A stretch of 38,037 nt of DNA, taken from positions 1 through 38,037 of the IMG/VR virus record IMGVR_UViG_3300002518_000025; one strand, given 5' to 3'. The notes beneath the pieces are model-generated. The model did not search any database and was not told the origin of the DNA. It was given only the letters and a program-made list of their open reading frames with translations. The position numbers and the translations under genes are program-made. Numbering within the stretch: the stretch's first letter is position 1; every line of letters begins with the position of its first letter. Of the stretch, positions 7,265 to 36,302 are shown in pieces. This stretch comes from a virus.

Positions 7265-8647
7265 ATGGATCGTCTGAAAGAACTTCAGGAACTGCGGCTG
7301 AAGCTTCACAATGAGATTAAGGCTCACGCCGATAAGCTTCCGGCTGACGGTACTGAATCTCCTGAATGGAAGGAAACCTGGGATCAACTGAATAAAGCCT
7401 ATGACGAAAATATGGTTTCGTTGGATGCTGAAACCAAGAAGATTGCTGAGTCTCAGGCTGTTCAAAACCGGCTGTCTGCAATTGATACGCAGCTTTCCAG
7501 CATGCCGAGGTTTGAGCTTCAGAACTTCAACCAGCCGCCTCAGAATCCTCTGCCTAATAGTAACCAGCCAGTAACGTTTGAGCAGCAACAGTTGCTGGCT
7601 CTCCAAGGCTGGATGATGAACTCTTCATCCGAACACAGTCATCGGATTGAGGATCGACATCGTCAAGCTGCTCTTGCTACTGGTAACCGTCTTGACAGTA
7701 AAGATTTTGTGTTTGAGTTGAGCACTACTCAAGCCTTTAATCAATATCGTAGGGATCGTCTCCAGAATGCTCTAACAGGTGGTCAAGGTACAAAAGGTGG
7801 ATTCATCACTGGTGAATCTTTCGTAGCATCTGTTGAACGAGCCATGCTTGATTTTTCTGGTGTTGCTCAAGCTGCCGATATTATTCGTACGAATAACGGT
7901 GAACCTATTCACTACCCAACTGTGGATGACACTAGCAATACTGGTCGATTGGTTGGTGACGGTTCTGCTGTTACAGCAACTGCTGAACCTACTTTTGGTG
8001 ATGCAATTCTGTCGGCATATACCTTTACCTCTGATGAGATTAAGGTTGCACGGGCATTGCTGGAAGACTCTATGCTCGATCTGGGTAACTTGGTTGGCTC
8101 GCTCTTGGGTGAGCGGCTTGGTCGTATCCAGAATACCAACTACACTACGGGTACTGGTGCTGGTGTTGCTCCTCGTGGTGTTGTCACGGCTGCAACGGCT
8201 GGTGTAACGGCGGCTTCTACATCTGCCATCGTTTTTGACGAAGTTATTGATCTGGAGCACTCTCTCAATCCTTCTCGTCGTGTTCCTGGTCAGGGAACAG
8301 GCTACATGTTCAACGATGCTATTCTGCAAACTCTCCGTAAGCTCAAGAATGGTATGGGTGACTATCTGTGGCAATCAGGTGCTAACTCTGGTGCTCCAGA
8401 TACACTCAACACTTGGCCTTACTGGATTAACCAAGCCATGGCGTCTACGATTGCAACCACCAACATTACGATGTTGTTTGGTGCATTCCGTAACTATAAA
8501 ATTCGTCAAGTTCGTTCCATTCGTTTCCAACGTCTAGTTGAGAGGCATGCTGAAAATGATCAGGATGCTTTCTTGGCCTTTGTTCGTGGTGATGGTAATC
8601 TCGTAGATGCTGGGGATGGTGTAGTTCGTAAACTGACCCAAGCATAA
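7265..8647 (+). CDS. Major capsid protein (HK97 fold)
   Basis: This 460-aa protein has an N-terminal coiled-coil delta (scaffold) domain of about 110 residues. The HK97-fold shell domain follows: ALTGGQGTKGGFITGESFVA, then IHYPTVDDTSNTGRLVGDG, FTSDEIKVARALLEDS and ASTIATTNITMLFGAFRNYKI. The delta domain is presumably removed by the upstream protease at roughly residue 110-140; the exact site is not visible. The start has AGGA upstream (TTTTAGGAAATATGCT). Confidence 0.94.
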   Translation: MDRLKELQELRLKLHNEIKAHADKLPADGTESPEWKETWDQLNKAYDENMVSLDAETKKIAESQAVQNRLSAIDTQLSSMPRFELQNFNQPPQNPLPNSNQPVTFEQQQLLALQGWMMNSSSEHSHRIEDRHRQAALATGNRLDSKDFVFELSTTQAFNQYRRDRLQNALTGGQGTKGGFITGESFVASVERAMLDFSGVAQAADIIRTNNGEPIHYPTVDDTSNTGRLVGDGSAVTATAEPTFGDAILSAYTFTSDEIKVARALLEDSMLDLGNLVGSLLGERLGRIQNTNYTTGTGAGVAPRGVVTAATAGVTAASTSAIVFDEVIDLEHSLNPSRRVPGQGTGYMFNDAILQTLRKLKNGMGDYLWQSGANSGAPDTLNTWPYWINQAMASTIATTNITMLFGAFRNYKIRQVRSIRFQRLVERHAENDQDAFLAFVRGDGNLVDAGDGVVRKLTQA

Positions 8648-8681
8648 GTCATCTTTATAGCTCTTAACAGAAGGTAATGTA

Positions 8682-8879
8682 ATGTCAGAGCAAAAGAAGA
8701 AGCCAGAACAGCAAACACTTGTTAAACTTTTGACTTCTGTGGGATTTCACAAAACGGACACTTGTGGTAGATTGATCGGCATTAGCACTAGACATGCTGG
8801 TGACGAGGTTGAATTACCTAAGTCTGAAGCCGAAACCTTTGTTGAACGGGGATACGCCGTTTACCCTAAGAAGTCTTAA
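8682..8879 (+). CDS. Small hypothetical head-module protein
   Basis: A 65-aa, charged protein starts after AGAAGGTAATGTA (ribosome site). It has no signal or membrane segment. Its position between the capsid gene and decoration-like proteins suggests a minor head or connector role, but no family is recognised. Confidence 0.6.
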   Translation: MSEQKKKPEQQTLVKLLTSVGFHKTDTCGRLIGISTRHAGDEVELPKSEAETFVERGYAVYPKKS

Positions 8880-18871: not shown

Positions 18872-19900
18872 TTACACTTCGGTTAATCCTTCACCTTCTT
18901 CATCCTCTAGCGTGTCCTCATCTGGCTCAAAGACATCATCTTCATCAAACTCTTCCTCTACTTCATCAATAATTTCGACATCGTAACCGCCACACCGGGG
19001 CACTTCAAGCTTCTTCAGGACAAGCTTAGCTAAGCTCATCTTTTCACCATCAATGAAAGCATTCCAAGCTTTCACGCACCAACTAATGATCTGATCCCGT
19101 GATGGAGGACTGGGTTTTGCTCGTTCACGATTCAGACGCTCTCTCAGAGCATAGGCGGGATCGTCTTTCTTGAGTCCCGTACCTTGAGCAAACGCCAAGA
19201 CAAACTCTTCTGCCTTGTCCCAAATCTTCCCCTCACCGTCTGAGAATCCGAATAAAAACAATAGTCCACTCAAGTACCCCCGTGAAATCATAGCTGAGAC
19301 AGCCTTGTCGTCATCTTGAGCATAAACAAACTCTGTTGCGTCTCTCAATTGAGGATGCTCCTCAATAAATTCGATCATCTCAGAATGTGGAAACTTAGGT
19401 GCATCTGATACTTTTTTGCCACCCATCCGCATCCAGACCAGTCGTGCAGAGACCGCCAAATCCTTTGCTAATCTCTTAACCTCTTTGTCGTCATACTTAT
19501 CTGCATCAAATTCTTGCCGTCTATACAACACATCGCCAGCAGTTCGCTTTTGTCCAATATCAATCGTATCTGCAAACTTGTGGTCAACACCATGTACCAC
19601 GACCATGTCTACGGCGATTTGACCCCGCACACCATACTTTTCCCTGTAATACTTCGGTTGTGCCTTCCTGGTGGTCTCAGCCATCACAATTGCCTGTAGA
19701 CGATGCTGACCATCCAGCAATGTTTGGTCTGACGCAAAGATGATTGGCTCACCATTTACACGCCACTTGTTCCGCAACAACTCGTCCCTGTAGTTTCTCG
19801 CCAGAGAAGGACGTAGAGGACGATTATCTGTGTTCCTCTTCAACCATTCCTCAGCCATCTCTGCGTTGACATGTGCAACTTCGGATTTAATTGTCGCCAT
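18872..19900 (-). CDS. ParB/DGQHRL-type DNA-associated protein
   Basis: This 342-aa protein has the N-terminal ParB-like pattern IIFASDQTLLDGQHRLQAIV (residues about 53-72) and IDIGQKRTAGDVLYRR near residue 115. A helical middle and a highly acidic C-terminal tail of about 40 residues follow. Phage proteins with DGQHRL are ParB/sulfiredoxin-fold relatives of mostly unknown role. The ribosome site AAAGG lies upstream on the minus strand. It is the last gene of the leftward unit and is followed by a terminator. Confidence 0.75.
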   Translation of the reverse strand: MATIKSEVAHVNAEMAEEWLKRNTDNRPLRPSLARNYRDELLRNKWRVNGEPIIFASDQTLLDGQHRLQAIVMAETTRKAQPKYYREKYGVRGQIAVDMVVVHGVDHKFADTIDIGQKRTAGDVLYRRQEFDADKYDDKEVKRLAKDLAVSARLVWMRMGGKKVSDAPKFPHSEMIEFIEEHPQLRDATEFVYAQDDDKAVSAMISRGYLSGLLFLFGFSDGEGKIWDKAEEFVLAFAQGTGLKKDDPAYALRERLNRERAKPSPPSRDQIISWCVKAWNAFIDGEKMSLAKLVLKKLEVPRCGGYDVEIIDEVEEEFDEDDVFEPDEDTLEDEEGEGLTEV

Positions 19901-20293: not shown

Positions 20294-21802
20294 CTAAGTT
20301 ACATAAACCAGTTCATTCTTAGCTCTTGTGATAGCTACATATATAAGGTTCTTTTCTTGTTCTTGCTGCCATGCTTTAGTTGCCATTGGATGAGGCATAG
20401 GAGCATCCTTGTGCTTGAGAATAAAGACCCTATCTGACTCAAGACCTTTTGCCTTATGCACACTGCTGAGAAGCACACCGTTCTTAACAGTGTCGGTAAA
20501 AACTTCTTCAATCTCCTTGATTGTGCCTTCGACTGTCTCCCTGTTGGCAGCAAAGATCAAAATACAGTCGTGACGATCTTGGAGATTAATTAGTCGATTT
20601 TCGTTGGGGCTTTTACGGGCACGTTCCTTCGTCTCTTCTTTCGCTAACCACGTACCAATTTTCTCGACAAGGTCAGTCGTGTCCTCTGCATTAAGTTTTT
20701 TGATTGTAGAAATCAGACCTTGTCCGATATCGCGTCCCTGGATATTTGCTGCTCGACCTTCACGCAGAAACTTAAAGCACTCACTCACAAGTGGAGCGTT
20801 CACGCGACACAAAATCATATCGCCAGCTTCAGCGTCTTCTCTGTAGCTCTTTTGTCCAGAGAAAGGCATGGAGCGTACAAGCCCGTCTGGGTTGTTCTCG
20901 TGAGCTTCAAACTCGGGTACATACTTTTGAGCCTCTTGCACAATAGCCCTACCACAGCGACGTGTAACCGTCAGAGGCAGCACTTGACAACCTCTCGTGG
21001 TTTCGGATAGACGATCATACATGTTGTCCATCGATTCAGCGTCCGCTCCTGCAAAACCATAAATTGCCTGATTCCGATCACCCACCAGAATCAATCGGCT
21101 ACCTGCTTTCAATGCCAATTCTTGTTGGCACCTATTTAAGTCCTGGCTCTCGTCAACAATAAGTAATGCATGCTTAAAGACTGGCAAATTTAGAATAATT
21201 GGTAACCAAATCATGTCGTTGAAATCAATCTCTCGGTCTTCCTCAACCTCCTTGCATGCTTCCAATACTTGCGGAACCAATTCAAATACTTCGTCGGAAC
21301 AACCATTGGTGTCAACGTCATAGTGCGAAGCCATCCCCGCCAATTCTTCTGTGTCATTTCCGCTGATCAGTGTCATCTTGCATAAACCAACTAACTTTTC
21401 TGTAATTCGAGCAATATTTGCTTTGGTCTTGTCTTGCCGTAATTCTTTAAATTCCATGCCGTACAAGCTACAGATCACATTCATTACTCGCCATTTATTG
21501 ACTTTGCAGTAACCAACAGATTGCTTAATTGATCGGAATCCCATCGAGTGCAGCGTCATCGCTTCGCATCCTGCGGGAACCTGTTGCTGTAGTACAGTGG
21601 CAATCGATTTATTGAAAGCGACAGCAGCAATCTTCTTGGCTTTAACTGACAGTGCCATGGTTTCCCAAATCTCAGCCTGTTGAGGAGAGGGAGTAAAAAT
21701 ACTTGCTTTCCCCTTCATGACTTTGAGACCTTCAACCATTGACGATGTCTTGCCGGTTCCAGCCAGTGCTTTAACGATCAAATGCTGTGGTTGACTGCTC
21801 AT
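20294..21802 (-). CDS. UvrD/Rep-like superfamily 1 DNA helicase
   Basis: The start MSSQPQHLIVKALAGTG at 21802 is chosen because GGAAGAGAG lies upstream and the longer starts overlap the promoter. The 502-aa enzyme shows motif I ALAGTGKTSSM, motif II LLIVDESQDLNRCQ, motif III LILVGDRNQAIYGFAGAD, motif IV-like LTVTRRCG, motif V LSSVHKAKGLESDRVFILK and motif VI NLIYVAITRAKNELV. It unwinds DNA 3'-5' and probably acts in phage replication or recombination. It heads the leftward operon. Confidence 0.9.
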   Translation of the reverse strand: MSSQPQHLIVKALAGTGKTSSMVEGLKVMKGKASIFTPSPQQAEIWETMALSVKAKKIAAVAFNKSIATVLQQQVPAGCEAMTLHSMGFRSIKQSVGYCKVNKWRVMNVICSLYGMEFKELRQDKTKANIARITEKLVGLCKMTLISGNDTEELAGMASHYDVDTNGCSDEVFELVPQVLEACKEVEEDREIDFNDMIWLPIILNLPVFKHALLIVDESQDLNRCQQELALKAGSRLILVGDRNQAIYGFAGADAESMDNMYDRLSETTRGCQVLPLTVTRRCGRAIVQEAQKYVPEFEAHENNPDGLVRSMPFSGQKSYREDAEAGDMILCRVNAPLVSECFKFLREGRAANIQGRDIGQGLISTIKKLNAEDTTDLVEKIGTWLAKEETKERARKSPNENRLINLQDRHDCILIFAANRETVEGTIKEIEEVFTDTVKNGVLLSSVHKAKGLESDRVFILKHKDAPMPHPMATKAWQQEQEKNLIYVAITRAKNELVYVT

Positions 21803-21860
21803 GCTTTTCGTCTCTCTTCCAAAGTATTTTGTTGTTTCGTTCCTGCCTGCCATGGCTTCC

Positions 21861-21888
21861 ATTATACCAAACTATACAACGTTGGCAA
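21861..21888 (-). promoter_or_regulatory. Leftward promoter for the helicase operon
   Basis: On the minus strand TTGCCA (21888-21883) and TATAAT (21866-21861) are separated by 16 bp, just upstream of the helicase start. It diverges from the promoter at 21976. Confidence 0.65.
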
Positions 21889-21975: not shown

Positions 21976-22004
21976 TTGACCCCATCCTCCAAACCTGCTA
22001 CAAT
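21976..22004 (+). promoter_or_regulatory. Promoter of the repeat array / csrA / IS110-like cassette
   Basis: TTGACC (21976-21981) and TACAAT (21999-22004) are separated by 17 bp. The first repeat begins at 22022, so a transcript starting near 22011 would enter the array after only about ten bases. No open reading frame of note lies between the promoter and csrA, so the array is a long leader or a non-coding RNA. Confidence 0.7.
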
Positions 22005-22021
22005 GCCCGCCATGAAAGGCA

Positions 22022-22223
22022 GAACGCAGCCATACACGCTGATGCAGACAACAACAGGTAGGCAGAACGCAGCCATTGATTTAACCCAAGAACAGCGAAC
22101 GTAAACGTAGTCTTTCGCTTCGAGCAACCCAAATGGCAAGAACGCAGCCAATTTTGAAGGTACTTGTACAATCGAAGAACGTAGCCAAGTGAAAAGATAA
22201 TCCAGAGATTCCAAACGTTGTTT
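22022..22223 (+). repeat. Short-repeat array 1 (GAACGYAGYCA, ~37-bp period)
   Basis: Repeats start at 22022, 22065, 22103 (AAACGTAGTCT), 22140, 22177, and a decayed copy at 22213. The intervals are 43, 38, 37, 37 and 36 bp. Three copies read GAACGCAGCCA, one reads GAACGTAGCCA. Copies at 22022, 22065 and 22140 are preceded by GGCA or GGCAA. Spacers are 25-32 nt, all different and without obvious hairpins. The last unit carries the csrA ribosome site. The same repeat forms array 2 beyond the IS110-like gene and is not seen elsewhere in the window. Confidence 0.85.
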
Positions 22224-22238
22224 AATCAGGAGGATTGT

Positions 22239-22415
22239 ATGCTTGTGCTAACTCGCAAACTAAACGAGGGCATTCTGATCGGGGATGACATTTACATTGT
22301 TGTAACAAATCTTTCCTCATCAAAAGTCAACTTAGGTATCAACGCACCAAATGATGTACCTATTTTACGGGCAGAATTGGTAGAGCAGCAAGAATCTGAT
22401 AATCACGAAGATTAA
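22239..22415 (+). CDS. csrA: CsrA/RsmA carbon storage regulator homologue
   Basis: The 58-aa product starts at ATG 22239 with CAGGAGGA at 22227-22234; an upstream TTG in the frame (22218) lies in the decayed last repeat and is not used. The sequence is canonical: MLVLTRKLNEGILIGDDI, then NLGINAPNDVPILRAELVEQ, with the RNA-contacting Arg6 and Arg44 both kept. CsrA dimers bind GGA motifs in mRNA leaders and alter translation. Here it is the first protein gene of the array cassette, 19 bases before the IS110-like gene. It may act on host mRNAs, its own leader (which contains AGGAGGA), or RNAs of the cassette. Confidence 0.95.
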   Translation: MLVLTRKLNEGILIGDDIYIVVTNLSSSKVNLGINAPNDVPILRAELVEQQESDNHED

Positions 22416-22434
22416 CGAAAGGTCCAGTAGTAAT

Positions 22435-23349
22435 ATGTCCGAGTCCAAAACGCAAACGCTCGAAGCTGTTGATTATGCGGCTGTTAACTGGGAAGTTATT
22501 GACAAACTAACCAAAGAAATGATGGCGTCTGCTCTAACTCTTACTCAGAGAGAAGCCCGACATTTAGTAGGCATGTATTACTCAGTACAAAACTTCCGTA
22601 TTCATGCTGGGAACCACACCTCAGTAAAAACAGGGGCAGATGCTAATCCTGTCCTGGCTTGGGTGTTTTCTAACTGTCGCCTGATTGAGGAGAATATTAA
22701 ACGGGCACTTGGCAGGTTTGCAGCAGAATTTACAGTTGGTCAATGGTTACAGAGTATCTGCGGCATCGGTCCTGTTATCTCGGCTGGCTTCATTGCTCAC
22801 CTTGATGTTCGAGACCGACCTACCTATGGTCACTTTCACTCGTTTGCTGGTCTCAGTCCCCATATCAAATGGGAGAAAGGACAAAAAAGACCATTCAACG
22901 CTGCTCTTAAAGTCCTCTGTTACAAAGTAGGGGAGAGCTTTGTCAAAGTCCAGAACAACAAAAAGGACTACTACGGTAAGCTGTATGCTGTACACAAGGC
23001 TGGCCTAGTTCTGCGTAATGAAAGGGGTGACTTTGCTGAAGACTCTGCTCGAATTCTAACCGAAAAGAATTGGGGTAAAGACACTGATGCTTACGGGCAT
23101 TATTCGGGTGGTAGACTACCGCCCGCTCATGTCCATGCTCGTGCTCGTAGATATGTAGCCAAGCTACTTTTGTCACATCTTCATACCGTGATGTATGAAG
23201 ACTATTACAAAACCAAAGCTCCTATTCCTTACCCATTTTCTAAACATGCAAAAGAAGCTGCTATGCCTGATCATCGTCACTTGCTAGAAGTCCCTAACTG
23301 GCCGATGTTATCCTTTGGAAAAGACTTAGCCTGCCTGCTTGATTCCTAG
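22435..23349 (+). CDS. IS110-like protein lacking the DEDD domain (array-associated)
   Basis: This 304-aa protein matches the C-terminal half of IS110-family transposases: a helix-hairpin-helix SICGIGPVISAGFIAHLD (residues 107-124) and FHSFAGLSPHIKWEKGQKR (134-152), then NAALKVLCYKVGESFVK. The N-terminal 105 residues are helical and do not contain a RuvC-like DEDD nuclease. The SSG segment that carries the catalytic Ser in IS110 enzymes is replaced by WEKGQ, aligned by eye. A C-terminal extension (about 180-304) holds GKDTDAYGHYSGG and HVHARARRYVAKLLL. No terminal inverted repeats or empty-site signs surround it. It is flanked on both sides by the same repeat. A nucleic-acid-binding rather than transposing role is inferred. 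Confidence 0.8.
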   Translation: MSESKTQTLEAVDYAAVNWEVIDKLTKEMMASALTLTQREARHLVGMYYSVQNFRIHAGNHTSVKTGADANPVLAWVFSNCRLIEENIKRALGRFAAEFTVGQWLQSICGIGPVISAGFIAHLDVRDRPTYGHFHSFAGLSPHIKWEKGQKRPFNAALKVLCYKVGESFVKVQNNKKDYYGKLYAVHKAGLVLRNERGDFAEDSARILTEKNWGKDTDAYGHYSGGRLPPAHVHARARRYVAKLLLSHLHTVMYEDYYKTKAPIPYPFSKHAKEAAMPDHRHLLEVPNWPMLSFGKDLACLLDS

Positions 23350-23383
23350 CCATGGTCGCAGATGATGATAATCTAAATAAGGC

Positions 23384-23726
23384 GAACGTAGTCAACAGGA
23401 GCAATAACCCAAGTAGAATGAACGTAGTCACACAACGCTATAAACCATGCCACACGACCGCAGTTAGTGATTGAGATACTTCGCATACCCCGAGAACGTA
23501 GTCAAGGATTACGATACTTCGCACGCCCCGAGAACGTAGTTGGACTTTACAACAACTCAAATAGTAGGAACGTAGTCAGTGATTACGATACTTCGCATGC
23601 CCCGAGAACGTAGTCAATAATCCAGACATACACGTCTTCAGAACGTAGTCACAACCAGCAATTCCATACGTGTACTTTGAACGTAGTTAAAGACCAACAA
23701 TAGCCCAGATGCTTTGAACGTCTTAT
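23384..23726 (+). repeat. Short-repeat array 2 (GAACGTAGTCA, 36-38-bp period)
   Basis: Repeats start at 23384, 23420, 23456 (GACCGCAGTTA), 23494, 23532, 23568, 23606, 23641, 23679 and a truncated one at 23716. The intervals are 36, 36, 38, 38, 36, 38, 35, 38 and 37 bp. Six copies are exactly GAACGTAGTCA. Spacers are 24-27 nt. Three spacers (23467-23493, 23505-23531, 23579-23605) are near-identical variants sharing GATACTTCGCA and ending CCCCGA; the others are unrelated. No promoter of its own is evident, so it is probably transcribed with the genes upstream. The final unit contains the ribosome site of the uracil-DNA glycosylase gene. Confidence 0.92.
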
Positions 23727-23736
23727 TGGAGTATGT

Positions 23737-24309
23737 ATGACAATCTATCGACGGATTGTGGATAAGTCTATTTCTCCCGAATTCAGAAAGCTACAGCGGC
23801 AATACAAAGACTGTAAAAAATGTGCCTTGTGTAAAACTCGTAACCTTGTAATACATTATAGGGGCAATATACCCTGTGATATTGTTTTCCTTGGTGAAGC
23901 TCCAGGAGAGTCTGAAGACATTCTGGGTATTCCATTCATCGGACCAGCAGGTAAAAAACTTGATGAGGCATTAACTGAATTGCTGGCGGACATAACATTC
24001 CGGTTTGCAATTACCAACATTGTGTCTTGCATCCCTCTAGACGAGGACAATCGGATCAGATCACCAACAGCAAAAGAAGCAAAGGCGTGCCGCCCTCGAC
24101 TCAATCGATTCTTAGCTCTTGCAAAGCCTAAGTTGATTGTTACAATGGGCAAAATTGCTCAATCCTTTCTTCCAGAACAGTACAAGGATTATGCAGTGGG
24201 CGTTAAGCATCCTAGTGCTATTCTGCGTGCTCACAGTGCTCGTCAGCCACTAGAATTGCAACGTTTTGTACTGACAGTAAAATCAGCAATTGAGAAAAGA
24301 GTAGTATGA
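23737..24309 (+). CDS. Uracil-DNA glycosylase, family 4-like
   Basis: This 190-aa protein has the family 4/5 pattern: Fe-S cysteines CKKCALC (about residues 26-32) with later Cys in TNIVSC and KACRPRL, the active-site GEAPGESED (about 55-63) with GIPFIGPAGKKLD, and a C-terminal KHPSAIL. It excises uracil from DNA or acts in the related SPO1 polymerase-associated group. The gene follows array 2 directly, with TTGGAG 9 bases upstream. Its stop overlaps the RuvC-like start. Confidence 0.85.
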   Translation: MTIYRRIVDKSISPEFRKLQRQYKDCKKCALCKTRNLVIHYRGNIPCDIVFLGEAPGESEDILGIPFIGPAGKKLDEALTELLADITFRFAITNIVSCIPLDEDNRIRSPTAKEAKACRPRLNRFLALAKPKLIVTMGKIAQSFLPEQYKDYAVGVKHPSAILRAHSARQPLELQRFVLTVKSAIEKRVV

Positions 24310-35849: not shown

Positions 35850-36302
35850 TTACTCCTCATTTAATGTGTGTCGGCACTTTGGATAATTTGTACATCCCCA
35901 AAACGTACCAAACTTTCCCTCTACTCGTCGCATGATTGCACTGCATGATGGGCATGTGTGTCCGGGAAAAAGCATTGCAAAGTCTCTTAATCTCTTACCT
36001 AGATTCTTTTTCCATGTTTTGATCCTGTTGACCCTACCACAACCACACACTCTCAATATGGTTCCTTGTTCTGTTCTGGTGAAAAGCATCACCCTAACAG
36101 CGTCAGCACCACACTCCCTACTTTCGTCTGTACCGGCATCAATTCCAGTAAAAACACGTAGGGACAATTGATGTCCTTTTACATCAACTCTCTTGGCAAA
36201 GACAATCTCGTACGTCCGCTCTACCTCTATCTGCGTAAACCCTTTGGGTTCCAAAAAGAACGTCATCTCAGCTAGTGTAATATTGTGGAATTGGTTATTC
36301 AT
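35850..36302 (-). CDS. Protein with topoisomerase-type C4 zinc finger
   Basis: This 150-aa protein has a novel N-terminal domain (about 1-105, with CGCGRVNRIKTW near 88) and a C-terminal zf-C4_Topoisom finger: CPSCSAIMRR, then FGTFWGCTNYPKCRHT (about 115-145). Such fingers bind single-stranded nucleic acid. Its stop lies within the ribosome site of the next leftward gene. Function beyond nucleic-acid binding is unknown. Confidence 0.7.
   Translation of the reverse strand: MNNQFHNITLAEMTFFLEPKGFTQIEVERTYEIVFAKRVDVKGHQLSLRVFTGIDAGTDESRECGADAVRVMLFTRTEQGTILRVCGCGRVNRIKTWKKNLGKRLRDFAMLFPGHTCPSCSAIMRRVEGKFGTFWGCTNYPKCRHTLNEE

What the first reader, a model, noticed from the sequence alone, without database searches (positions are those of the whole stretch)
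21976..23736. Short-repeat arrays on both sides of csrA and a stripped IS110-like gene: a candidate new RNA-guided or RNA-regulated cassette
Seen: a TTGACC-N17-TACAAT promoter, then at least five copies of GAACGYAGYCA at about 37-bp period, csrA, an IS110-like gene, and ten more copies at 35-38-bp period. The repeat appears only here. Spacers are about 24-32 nt and mostly different. Known: IS110 transposases use structured guide (bridge/seek) RNAs encoded beside the gene. Inference: the arrays could yield many small RNAs bound by the IS110-like protein, a CRISPR-like layout without cas genes and with a repeat much shorter than a CRISPR repeat.
Basis: partly seen in the sequence, partly recalled or inferred. 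Interest (0 to 1): 0.92.

Follow-up and report, generated by a model that had tools for sequence, protein, structure and literature searches.

The report
TIGR-TasA RNA-guide arrays around csrA
A phage carries two arrays of short guide-RNA units around a csrA gene and a small IS110-like protein; the set matches TIGR-Tas, an RNA-guided DNA-targeting system described in 2025, here in a form with no nuclease, irregular units and an unusual csrA neighbour.

Summary
GAACGYAGYCA occurs 10 times exactly, all on the + strand and all in two clusters (22022-22187 and 23384-23651), with degenerate copies filling the ~37-bp grid. That is the dual-repeat layout of TIGR-Tas (Faure et al. 2025, PMC12045711). 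I found 96 viral homologues of the IS110-like protein. About three quarters carry repeat arrays at about 36 nt beside the gene. A profile of the family matches solved TasR and TasH better than IS110 transposases, and so does the predicted fold. The protein has no nuclease domain, so it is a TasA. Its supported relative L103 has the same type of edge repeat (GAGCGYAGCCA). The RNA-guided reading was therefore right, but the kind is known. Unusual here: variable loops (5-16 nt), no predicted terminator after either array, and csrA between array 1 and tasA, found in no other of 50 Tas-bearing records. Most likely it makes tigRNAs that guide a non-cleaving DNA-binding dimer. No target was found; expression is untested.

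The parts
21976..22004 (+). sigma70-like promoter TTGACC-N17-TACAAT in front of array 1, csrA and tasA
   Evidence: 10/12 consensus matches; number of such sites not above shuffles; start of transcription not measured
21861..21888 (-). divergent sigma70-like promoter for the helicase gene 20294-21862
   Evidence: 11/12 consensus matches; inferred
22022..22217 (+). TIGR array 1: five units (edge 11 nt, one expanded to 17; spacers 8+8; loops 5-16 nt), ending in a truncated edge AAACG
22239..22415 (+). csrA, 58 aa (ATG with AGGAGG in front); neighbour, probably not a part of the TIGR system
   Evidence: Pfam CsrA E=2.1e-20 (scanned from the TTG at 22218); not over the cut-off in the other 49 Tas-bearing records searched
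22435..23349 (+). tasA: 304-aa protein with no nuclease domain (IS110-like, Nop-type)
   Evidence: Pfam Transposase_20 E=3.6e-5, PHROG 4285 E=4.7e-37, profile matches to TasR 1.5e-26, TasH 9.8e-17, IS621 1.4e-5, Foldseek top hits TasR and TasH
23384..23722 (+). TIGR array 2: nine units of 35-38 nt, ending in a truncated edge GAACGTC
23456..23605 (+). within array 2: units at 23456, 23494 and 23568 share the loop GATACTTCGCA and near-identical spacers (apparent unit duplication)
23737..24309 (+). uracil-DNA glycosylase gene directly after array 2; no predicted terminator between
   Evidence: Pfam UDG E=4.1e-26; terminator scan

Best explanation
This is a TIGR-Tas locus of the TasA type. Shown by sequence: two arrays of dual-repeat units (edge GAACGYAGYCA, 8-nt spacer A, a loop that usually begins GA/AA and ends CA, 8-nt spacer B) flank csrA and a 304-aa Tas-family protein without nuclease domain. 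Inferred from the published system (PMC12045711): the arrays are transcribed with the genes, cut within the edge repeats into guide RNAs of about 36-38 nt, and bound by a TasA dimer, which opens double-stranded DNA where spacer A pairs with one strand and spacer B with the other. Having no nuclease, TasA would act by occupying or bending its targets and so blocking transcription or replication of host or rival DNA. csrA is most likely an unrelated early regulator in the same operon.
For: Array statistics and dual-repeat register: CA exactly 8 nt before the next edge in 12 of 14 units (10 of 12 after dropping two near-copies), 0 of 20,000 shuffles in each case. 96 homologues in IMG/VR at about 28-59% identity to the window protein, best segment; a repeat seed at 34-39-nt steps in 77 of the 97 loci counted with the window's (a few of these are coding repeats), clean dual arrays printed. 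Profile search of solved structures: TasR 1.5e-26, TasH 9.8e-17, IS621 1.4e-5. Predicted structure (pLDDT 85) matches TasR and TasH ahead of IS110 proteins. Clade with L103 and L128 (97/90), and L103 has edge GAGCGYAGCCA plus loops ending CCA on both sides of its tas gene. Homologues also lie in bacterial genome records, e.g. Halomonas sp. NO4 and Acidobacteriaceae KBS 96, with arrays.
Against: Loops vary in length and sequence, and some units are poor (22065 has a 5-nt loop; 22140 and 23641 lack the CA), so part of the arrays may be decayed. The tree joins long branches (window with L128), so that placement is unsure. No target was found: no excess of A-rcB matches in the phage's own contig, in the flanks of 67 other arrays or across 1.1 Mb of fetched loci. 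No expression data exist.
Confidence: 0.86

Rival explanations
1. A decaying TIGR-TasA locus: the protein is intact but the arrays have lost their loop repeats and no longer give useful guides.
For: Loops of 5-16 nt and several degenerate edges, while most arrays printed keep loops of constant length.
Against: The 8-nt spacing and the terminal CA are kept in 12 of 14 units; arrays end in truncated edges as published arrays do; the tas frame is open with conserved motifs.
Confidence: 0.12
2. A protein-binding DNA array (iterons, origin or partition site) in the replication region, with the repeats bound as DNA by a phage protein.
For: Direct repeats of about 11 bp beside helicase, resolvase, polymerase and primase genes; divergent promoters.
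Against: Homologous Tas genes in other phages carry equivalent arrays with different repeats; the second element at a fixed 8-nt distance is not expected for simple iterons; 37 bp is not a whole number of helical turns.
Confidence: 0.04
3. An IS110-type mobile element remnant whose flanking sequence was a bridge RNA.
For: Pfam and PHROG name the protein a transposase.
Against: The profile match to IS621 starts at IS621 residue 136 and ends at 240, so the N-terminal part of IS621 has no counterpart; arrays do not fold better than shuffles; TasR and TasH match far better.
Confidence: 0.02
4. An RNA regulator of CsrA: the arrays titrate or respond to CsrA.
For: csrA lies directly between array 1 and tasA.
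Against: The repeat has no GGA core, the motif known for CsrA sites (own knowledge); no csrA over the cut-off in 49 other Tas-bearing records and 14 other phage csrA loci have no Tas nearby.
Confidence: 0.03

Closest known systems
TIGR-TasA systems with dual-repeat arrays (Faure et al. 2025, PMC12045711)
   Same: Solo IS110-like Nop-type protein, arrays up- and downstream of the gene, units near 36 nt with two short spacers, repeats ending in CA/CCA, truncated last edge, carried by a phage
   Different: Loops vary in length and sequence within the locus, where the paper reports repeats conserved within a locus; csrA between array 1 and tasA; no terminator predicted after either array
TasR and TasH (9mty; 9w02-9w04, 21kl)
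   Same: Family profile and predicted fold match them best
   Different: No RuvC or HNH domain was found in the window protein
IS110 transposases with bridge RNA (IS621, 8wt6)
   Same: Weaker profile and fold similarity in the central part
   Different: No counterpart of the N-terminal part of IS621; flanking arrays instead of one structured RNA
CRISPR arrays
   Same: Repeats with variable spacers
   Different: Two alternating short elements, 8-nt spacers, no cas genes seen among the genes scanned
L103 locus (IMGVR_UViG_3300032180_000013)
   Same: Edge GAGCGYAGCCA, 8-nt spacers, arrays on both sides of the tas gene
   Different: More regular loops; tas gene carries an apparent intein; no csrA found in the record

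Membership tests
TIGR-Tas | Tas protein of the Nop/IS110-related family | tested here: met
   Profile hits to TasR 1.5e-26 and TasH 9.8e-17; Foldseek best hits 9mty, 9w02, 9w04, 21kl
TIGR-Tas | Array of two alternating repeats with two short spacers per unit, unit near 36 nt | tested here: met
   14 units, 8+8-nt spacers; 11 of 14 units 35-38 nt, the other three 32, 43 and 43 nt
TIGR-Tas | Box-like motifs shared by edge and loop | tested here: met
   Edges begin GA and end mostly YCA; loops end CA in 12 of 14 and begin GA or AA in 10 of 14. Not the UG/CCA of TasR; GA/CCA is seen in homologues
TIGR-Tas | Repeats conserved in sequence and length within the locus | tested here: inconclusive
   Edge conserved, loop 5-16 nt and variable
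TIGR-Tas | Array adjacent to tas across homologues | tested here: met
   Seed repeats in 77 of 97 loci, most with a unit within 150 nt of the gene; some of the rest are short contigs or have the gene at a contig end
TasA subtype | No RuvC or HNH domain | tested here: met
   Only Transposase_20 in Pfam; 304 aa, all-helical model
TIGR-Tas | Arrays processed into 36-nt tigRNAs bound by Tas | not testable with these tools
   Needs RNA sequencing
TIGR-Tas | RNA-guided binding of DNA through both spacers | not testable with these tools
   Needs biochemistry; no natural target found
TIGR stem-loop arrays | Palindromic sequences in place of edge repeats | tested here: not met
   Edge GAACGYAGYCA is not palindromic; arrays fold no better than shuffles
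IS110 transposase | N-terminal DEDD domain | tested here: not met
   No Pfam match other than Transposase_20; match to IS621 covers only its residues 136-240
CRISPR-Cas | Repeats of 25-36 nt and cas genes | tested here: not met
   11-nt repeat; no cas family among the genes scanned, though not every gene was scanned

The most novel reading that the evidence does not exclude
The arrays sit in the untranslated parts of one early mRNA (array 1, csrA, tasA, array 2, UDG). TasA-dependent excision of guides would then also cut the leader of csrA and the junction to UDG, so that guide production and expression of these genes are coupled, with TasA and CsrA forming a joint RNA-based takeover of the host.
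Probability: 0.08. Interest if true: 0.65.

Novelty: new member of a known kind. Interest (0 to 1): 0.4.

Why it matters
The role of nuclease-free TasA proteins and the natural targets of TIGR spacers are open questions in the 2025 paper. This locus adds a diverged TasA with variable loops and a csrA neighbour, and the homologue set collected here (96 loci, 1,065 distinct spacer pairs parsed) gives material to test targets. It also shows that generic annotation ('transposase') hides such systems.

Tried and rejected
Exact repeat pairs elsewhere in IMG/VR: only this phage showed a true array; the others I printed were coding or tandem-repeat chance matches, and not all of the 22 were printed. 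tblastn of the protein in phage records: nothing at 1e-5, only weak partial hits up to E=10; in plasmids weak IS110 hits. Rfam: nothing over threshold. Target search: in the 56-kb contig, A-rcB gave 4 matches with two and 26 with three mismatches against 1-4 and 16-23 in control orders; in the flanks of other arrays no match with at most one mismatch in one spacer; across 1.1 Mb the 10 exact A-rcB counts reduce to three independent sites once both-strand counting and related contigs are allowed for, against 0-6 raw counts in controls. The first parse had the last unit out of register and counted 11 of 14; corrected. Conservation of spacer order between related arrays was first miscounted because of differing registers and redone. 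csrA as a TIGR component: judged unlikely. The ParB-like hit of 18872-19900 is E=0.097 and no relative was found near other Tas genes, so a link to the published parB-like partner is not claimed.

Full report
What is there. The window is a virus record of 38,037 bp; the same phage is held as a 56,224-bp contig, IMGVR_UViG_3300025131_000046, identical in the parts compared except for one base in 19.2 kb. Between repeats I looked for a second conserved position. Counting back from the next edge, CA stands exactly 8 nt away in 12 of 14 intervals, or 10 of 12 after dropping two near-copies; none of 20,000 letter shuffles of the intervals reached this, in either case, with the distance left free from 5 to 12. 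The units therefore read edge (11 nt), spacer A (8), loop (5-16, usually 8-11), spacer B (8). Array 1 ends in AAACG and array 2 in GAACGTC, shortened edges.

What it is. No close relative of the protein outside this phage was found with the first searches. A degenerate DNA motif for PPAHxxARARRY, written from memory of this protein family and then tested, found 96 homologues in IMG/VR. I searched their surroundings without using the window's repeat. Repeats of about 8-10 nt at 36-nt steps stand beside the gene in most of them, with two alternating repeats and 8-9-nt spacers in the arrays printed. The seed count was 77 of 97 loci, but a few of those are coding repeats (for example L114), while L103, whose seed was also coding, does have an array when read by eye. 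As a rough control, 20 other viral loci gave a seed count of 4 or more in four cases: L019 and L027 have 12-nt tandem repeats, L018 is a low-complexity GTAGT repeat, and L022 was not inspected; these loci had been fetched for a repeat pattern, so the control is biased upward.

The layout and the protein match TIGR-Tas (Faure et al. 2025, PMC12045711). A profile of 41 homologues finds TasR (1.5e-26), TasH (9.8e-17), then IS621 (1.4e-5) and ISCro4 (1.9e-4) among solved structures. The predicted fold (pLDDT 85, pTM 0.82) matches TasR and TasH first, then IS110 proteins. The only Pfam domain is Transposase_20, so by the paper's naming it is a TasA. In a tree the window protein groups with L103 and L128 (97/90), with a warning about long branches. 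L103 has edges GAGCGYAGCCA on both sides of its tas gene, close to GAACGYAGYCA; in L128, a short contig, I saw no array.

What is unusual. Loops vary in length and sequence within the locus. csrA lies between array 1 and tasA; a CsrA model found it in this phage and over its cut-off in none of 49 other Tas-bearing records (one sub-threshold match), and a Tas model found nothing near 14 other phage csrA genes. Phage csrA genes are common in themselves (81 records). No terminator is predicted between array 1 and csrA or between array 2 and UDG, so the arrays may be parts of one mRNA; this is an inference from a consensus scan.

How it most likely works. By analogy with the published biochemistry, guides are cut from the transcript and bound by a TasA dimer that pairs spacer A with one strand and spacer B with the other. 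I derived the target form, spacer A followed by the reverse complement of spacer B, from the published 8-nt 3' overhang; the paper's text gives the cut position in two wordings, so this is my reading. No excess of such targets was found in the phage's own contig, near other arrays or across fetched loci. These tests cover little sequence and no whole host genome, and they assume 8-nt spacers in every locus.

Limits. Membership rests on sequence, layout and fold; no RNA or binding data exist for this locus. Most arrays were parsed automatically from consensus columns and not all were read by eye.

Noticed in passing
L062:102-2231 (-) and L103:3460-5526 (-): Both Tas homologues appear to be interrupted by inteins at conserved motifs. 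In L062 Pfam finds Hint and LAGLIDADG domains; in L103 it is by eye only, from the sequence.
   Followed up: partly
L112:5067-8770: In L112 a tas gene and arrays are followed by a UDG homologue (8246-8770) and further on a polA-like match, an order like that of the window.
   Followed up: no
loci L043-L134, arrays: Arrays of related phages share single spacers and neighbouring pairs in new orders. In L046/L094 pairs across the GAAAACCA repeat are kept and pairs across the other repeat are not; too few cases to generalise.
   Followed up: partly
L079, L124: Tas homologues with a 34-nt-period array about 2.6 kb from the gene.
   Followed up: no
window:24776-25033: Small ORF with a run of aspartates (DDDNDDDDDDDDD) and a hydrophobic start.
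   Followed up: no
window:34796-35185 and 35850-36302: Gamma-glutamyl cyclotransferase-like gene and a topoisomerase-type zinc-ribbon gene on the - strand.
   Followed up: no
window:18872-19900: Gene of PHROG 5931 with a sub-threshold ParB-like Pfam match (E=0.097).
   Followed up: no
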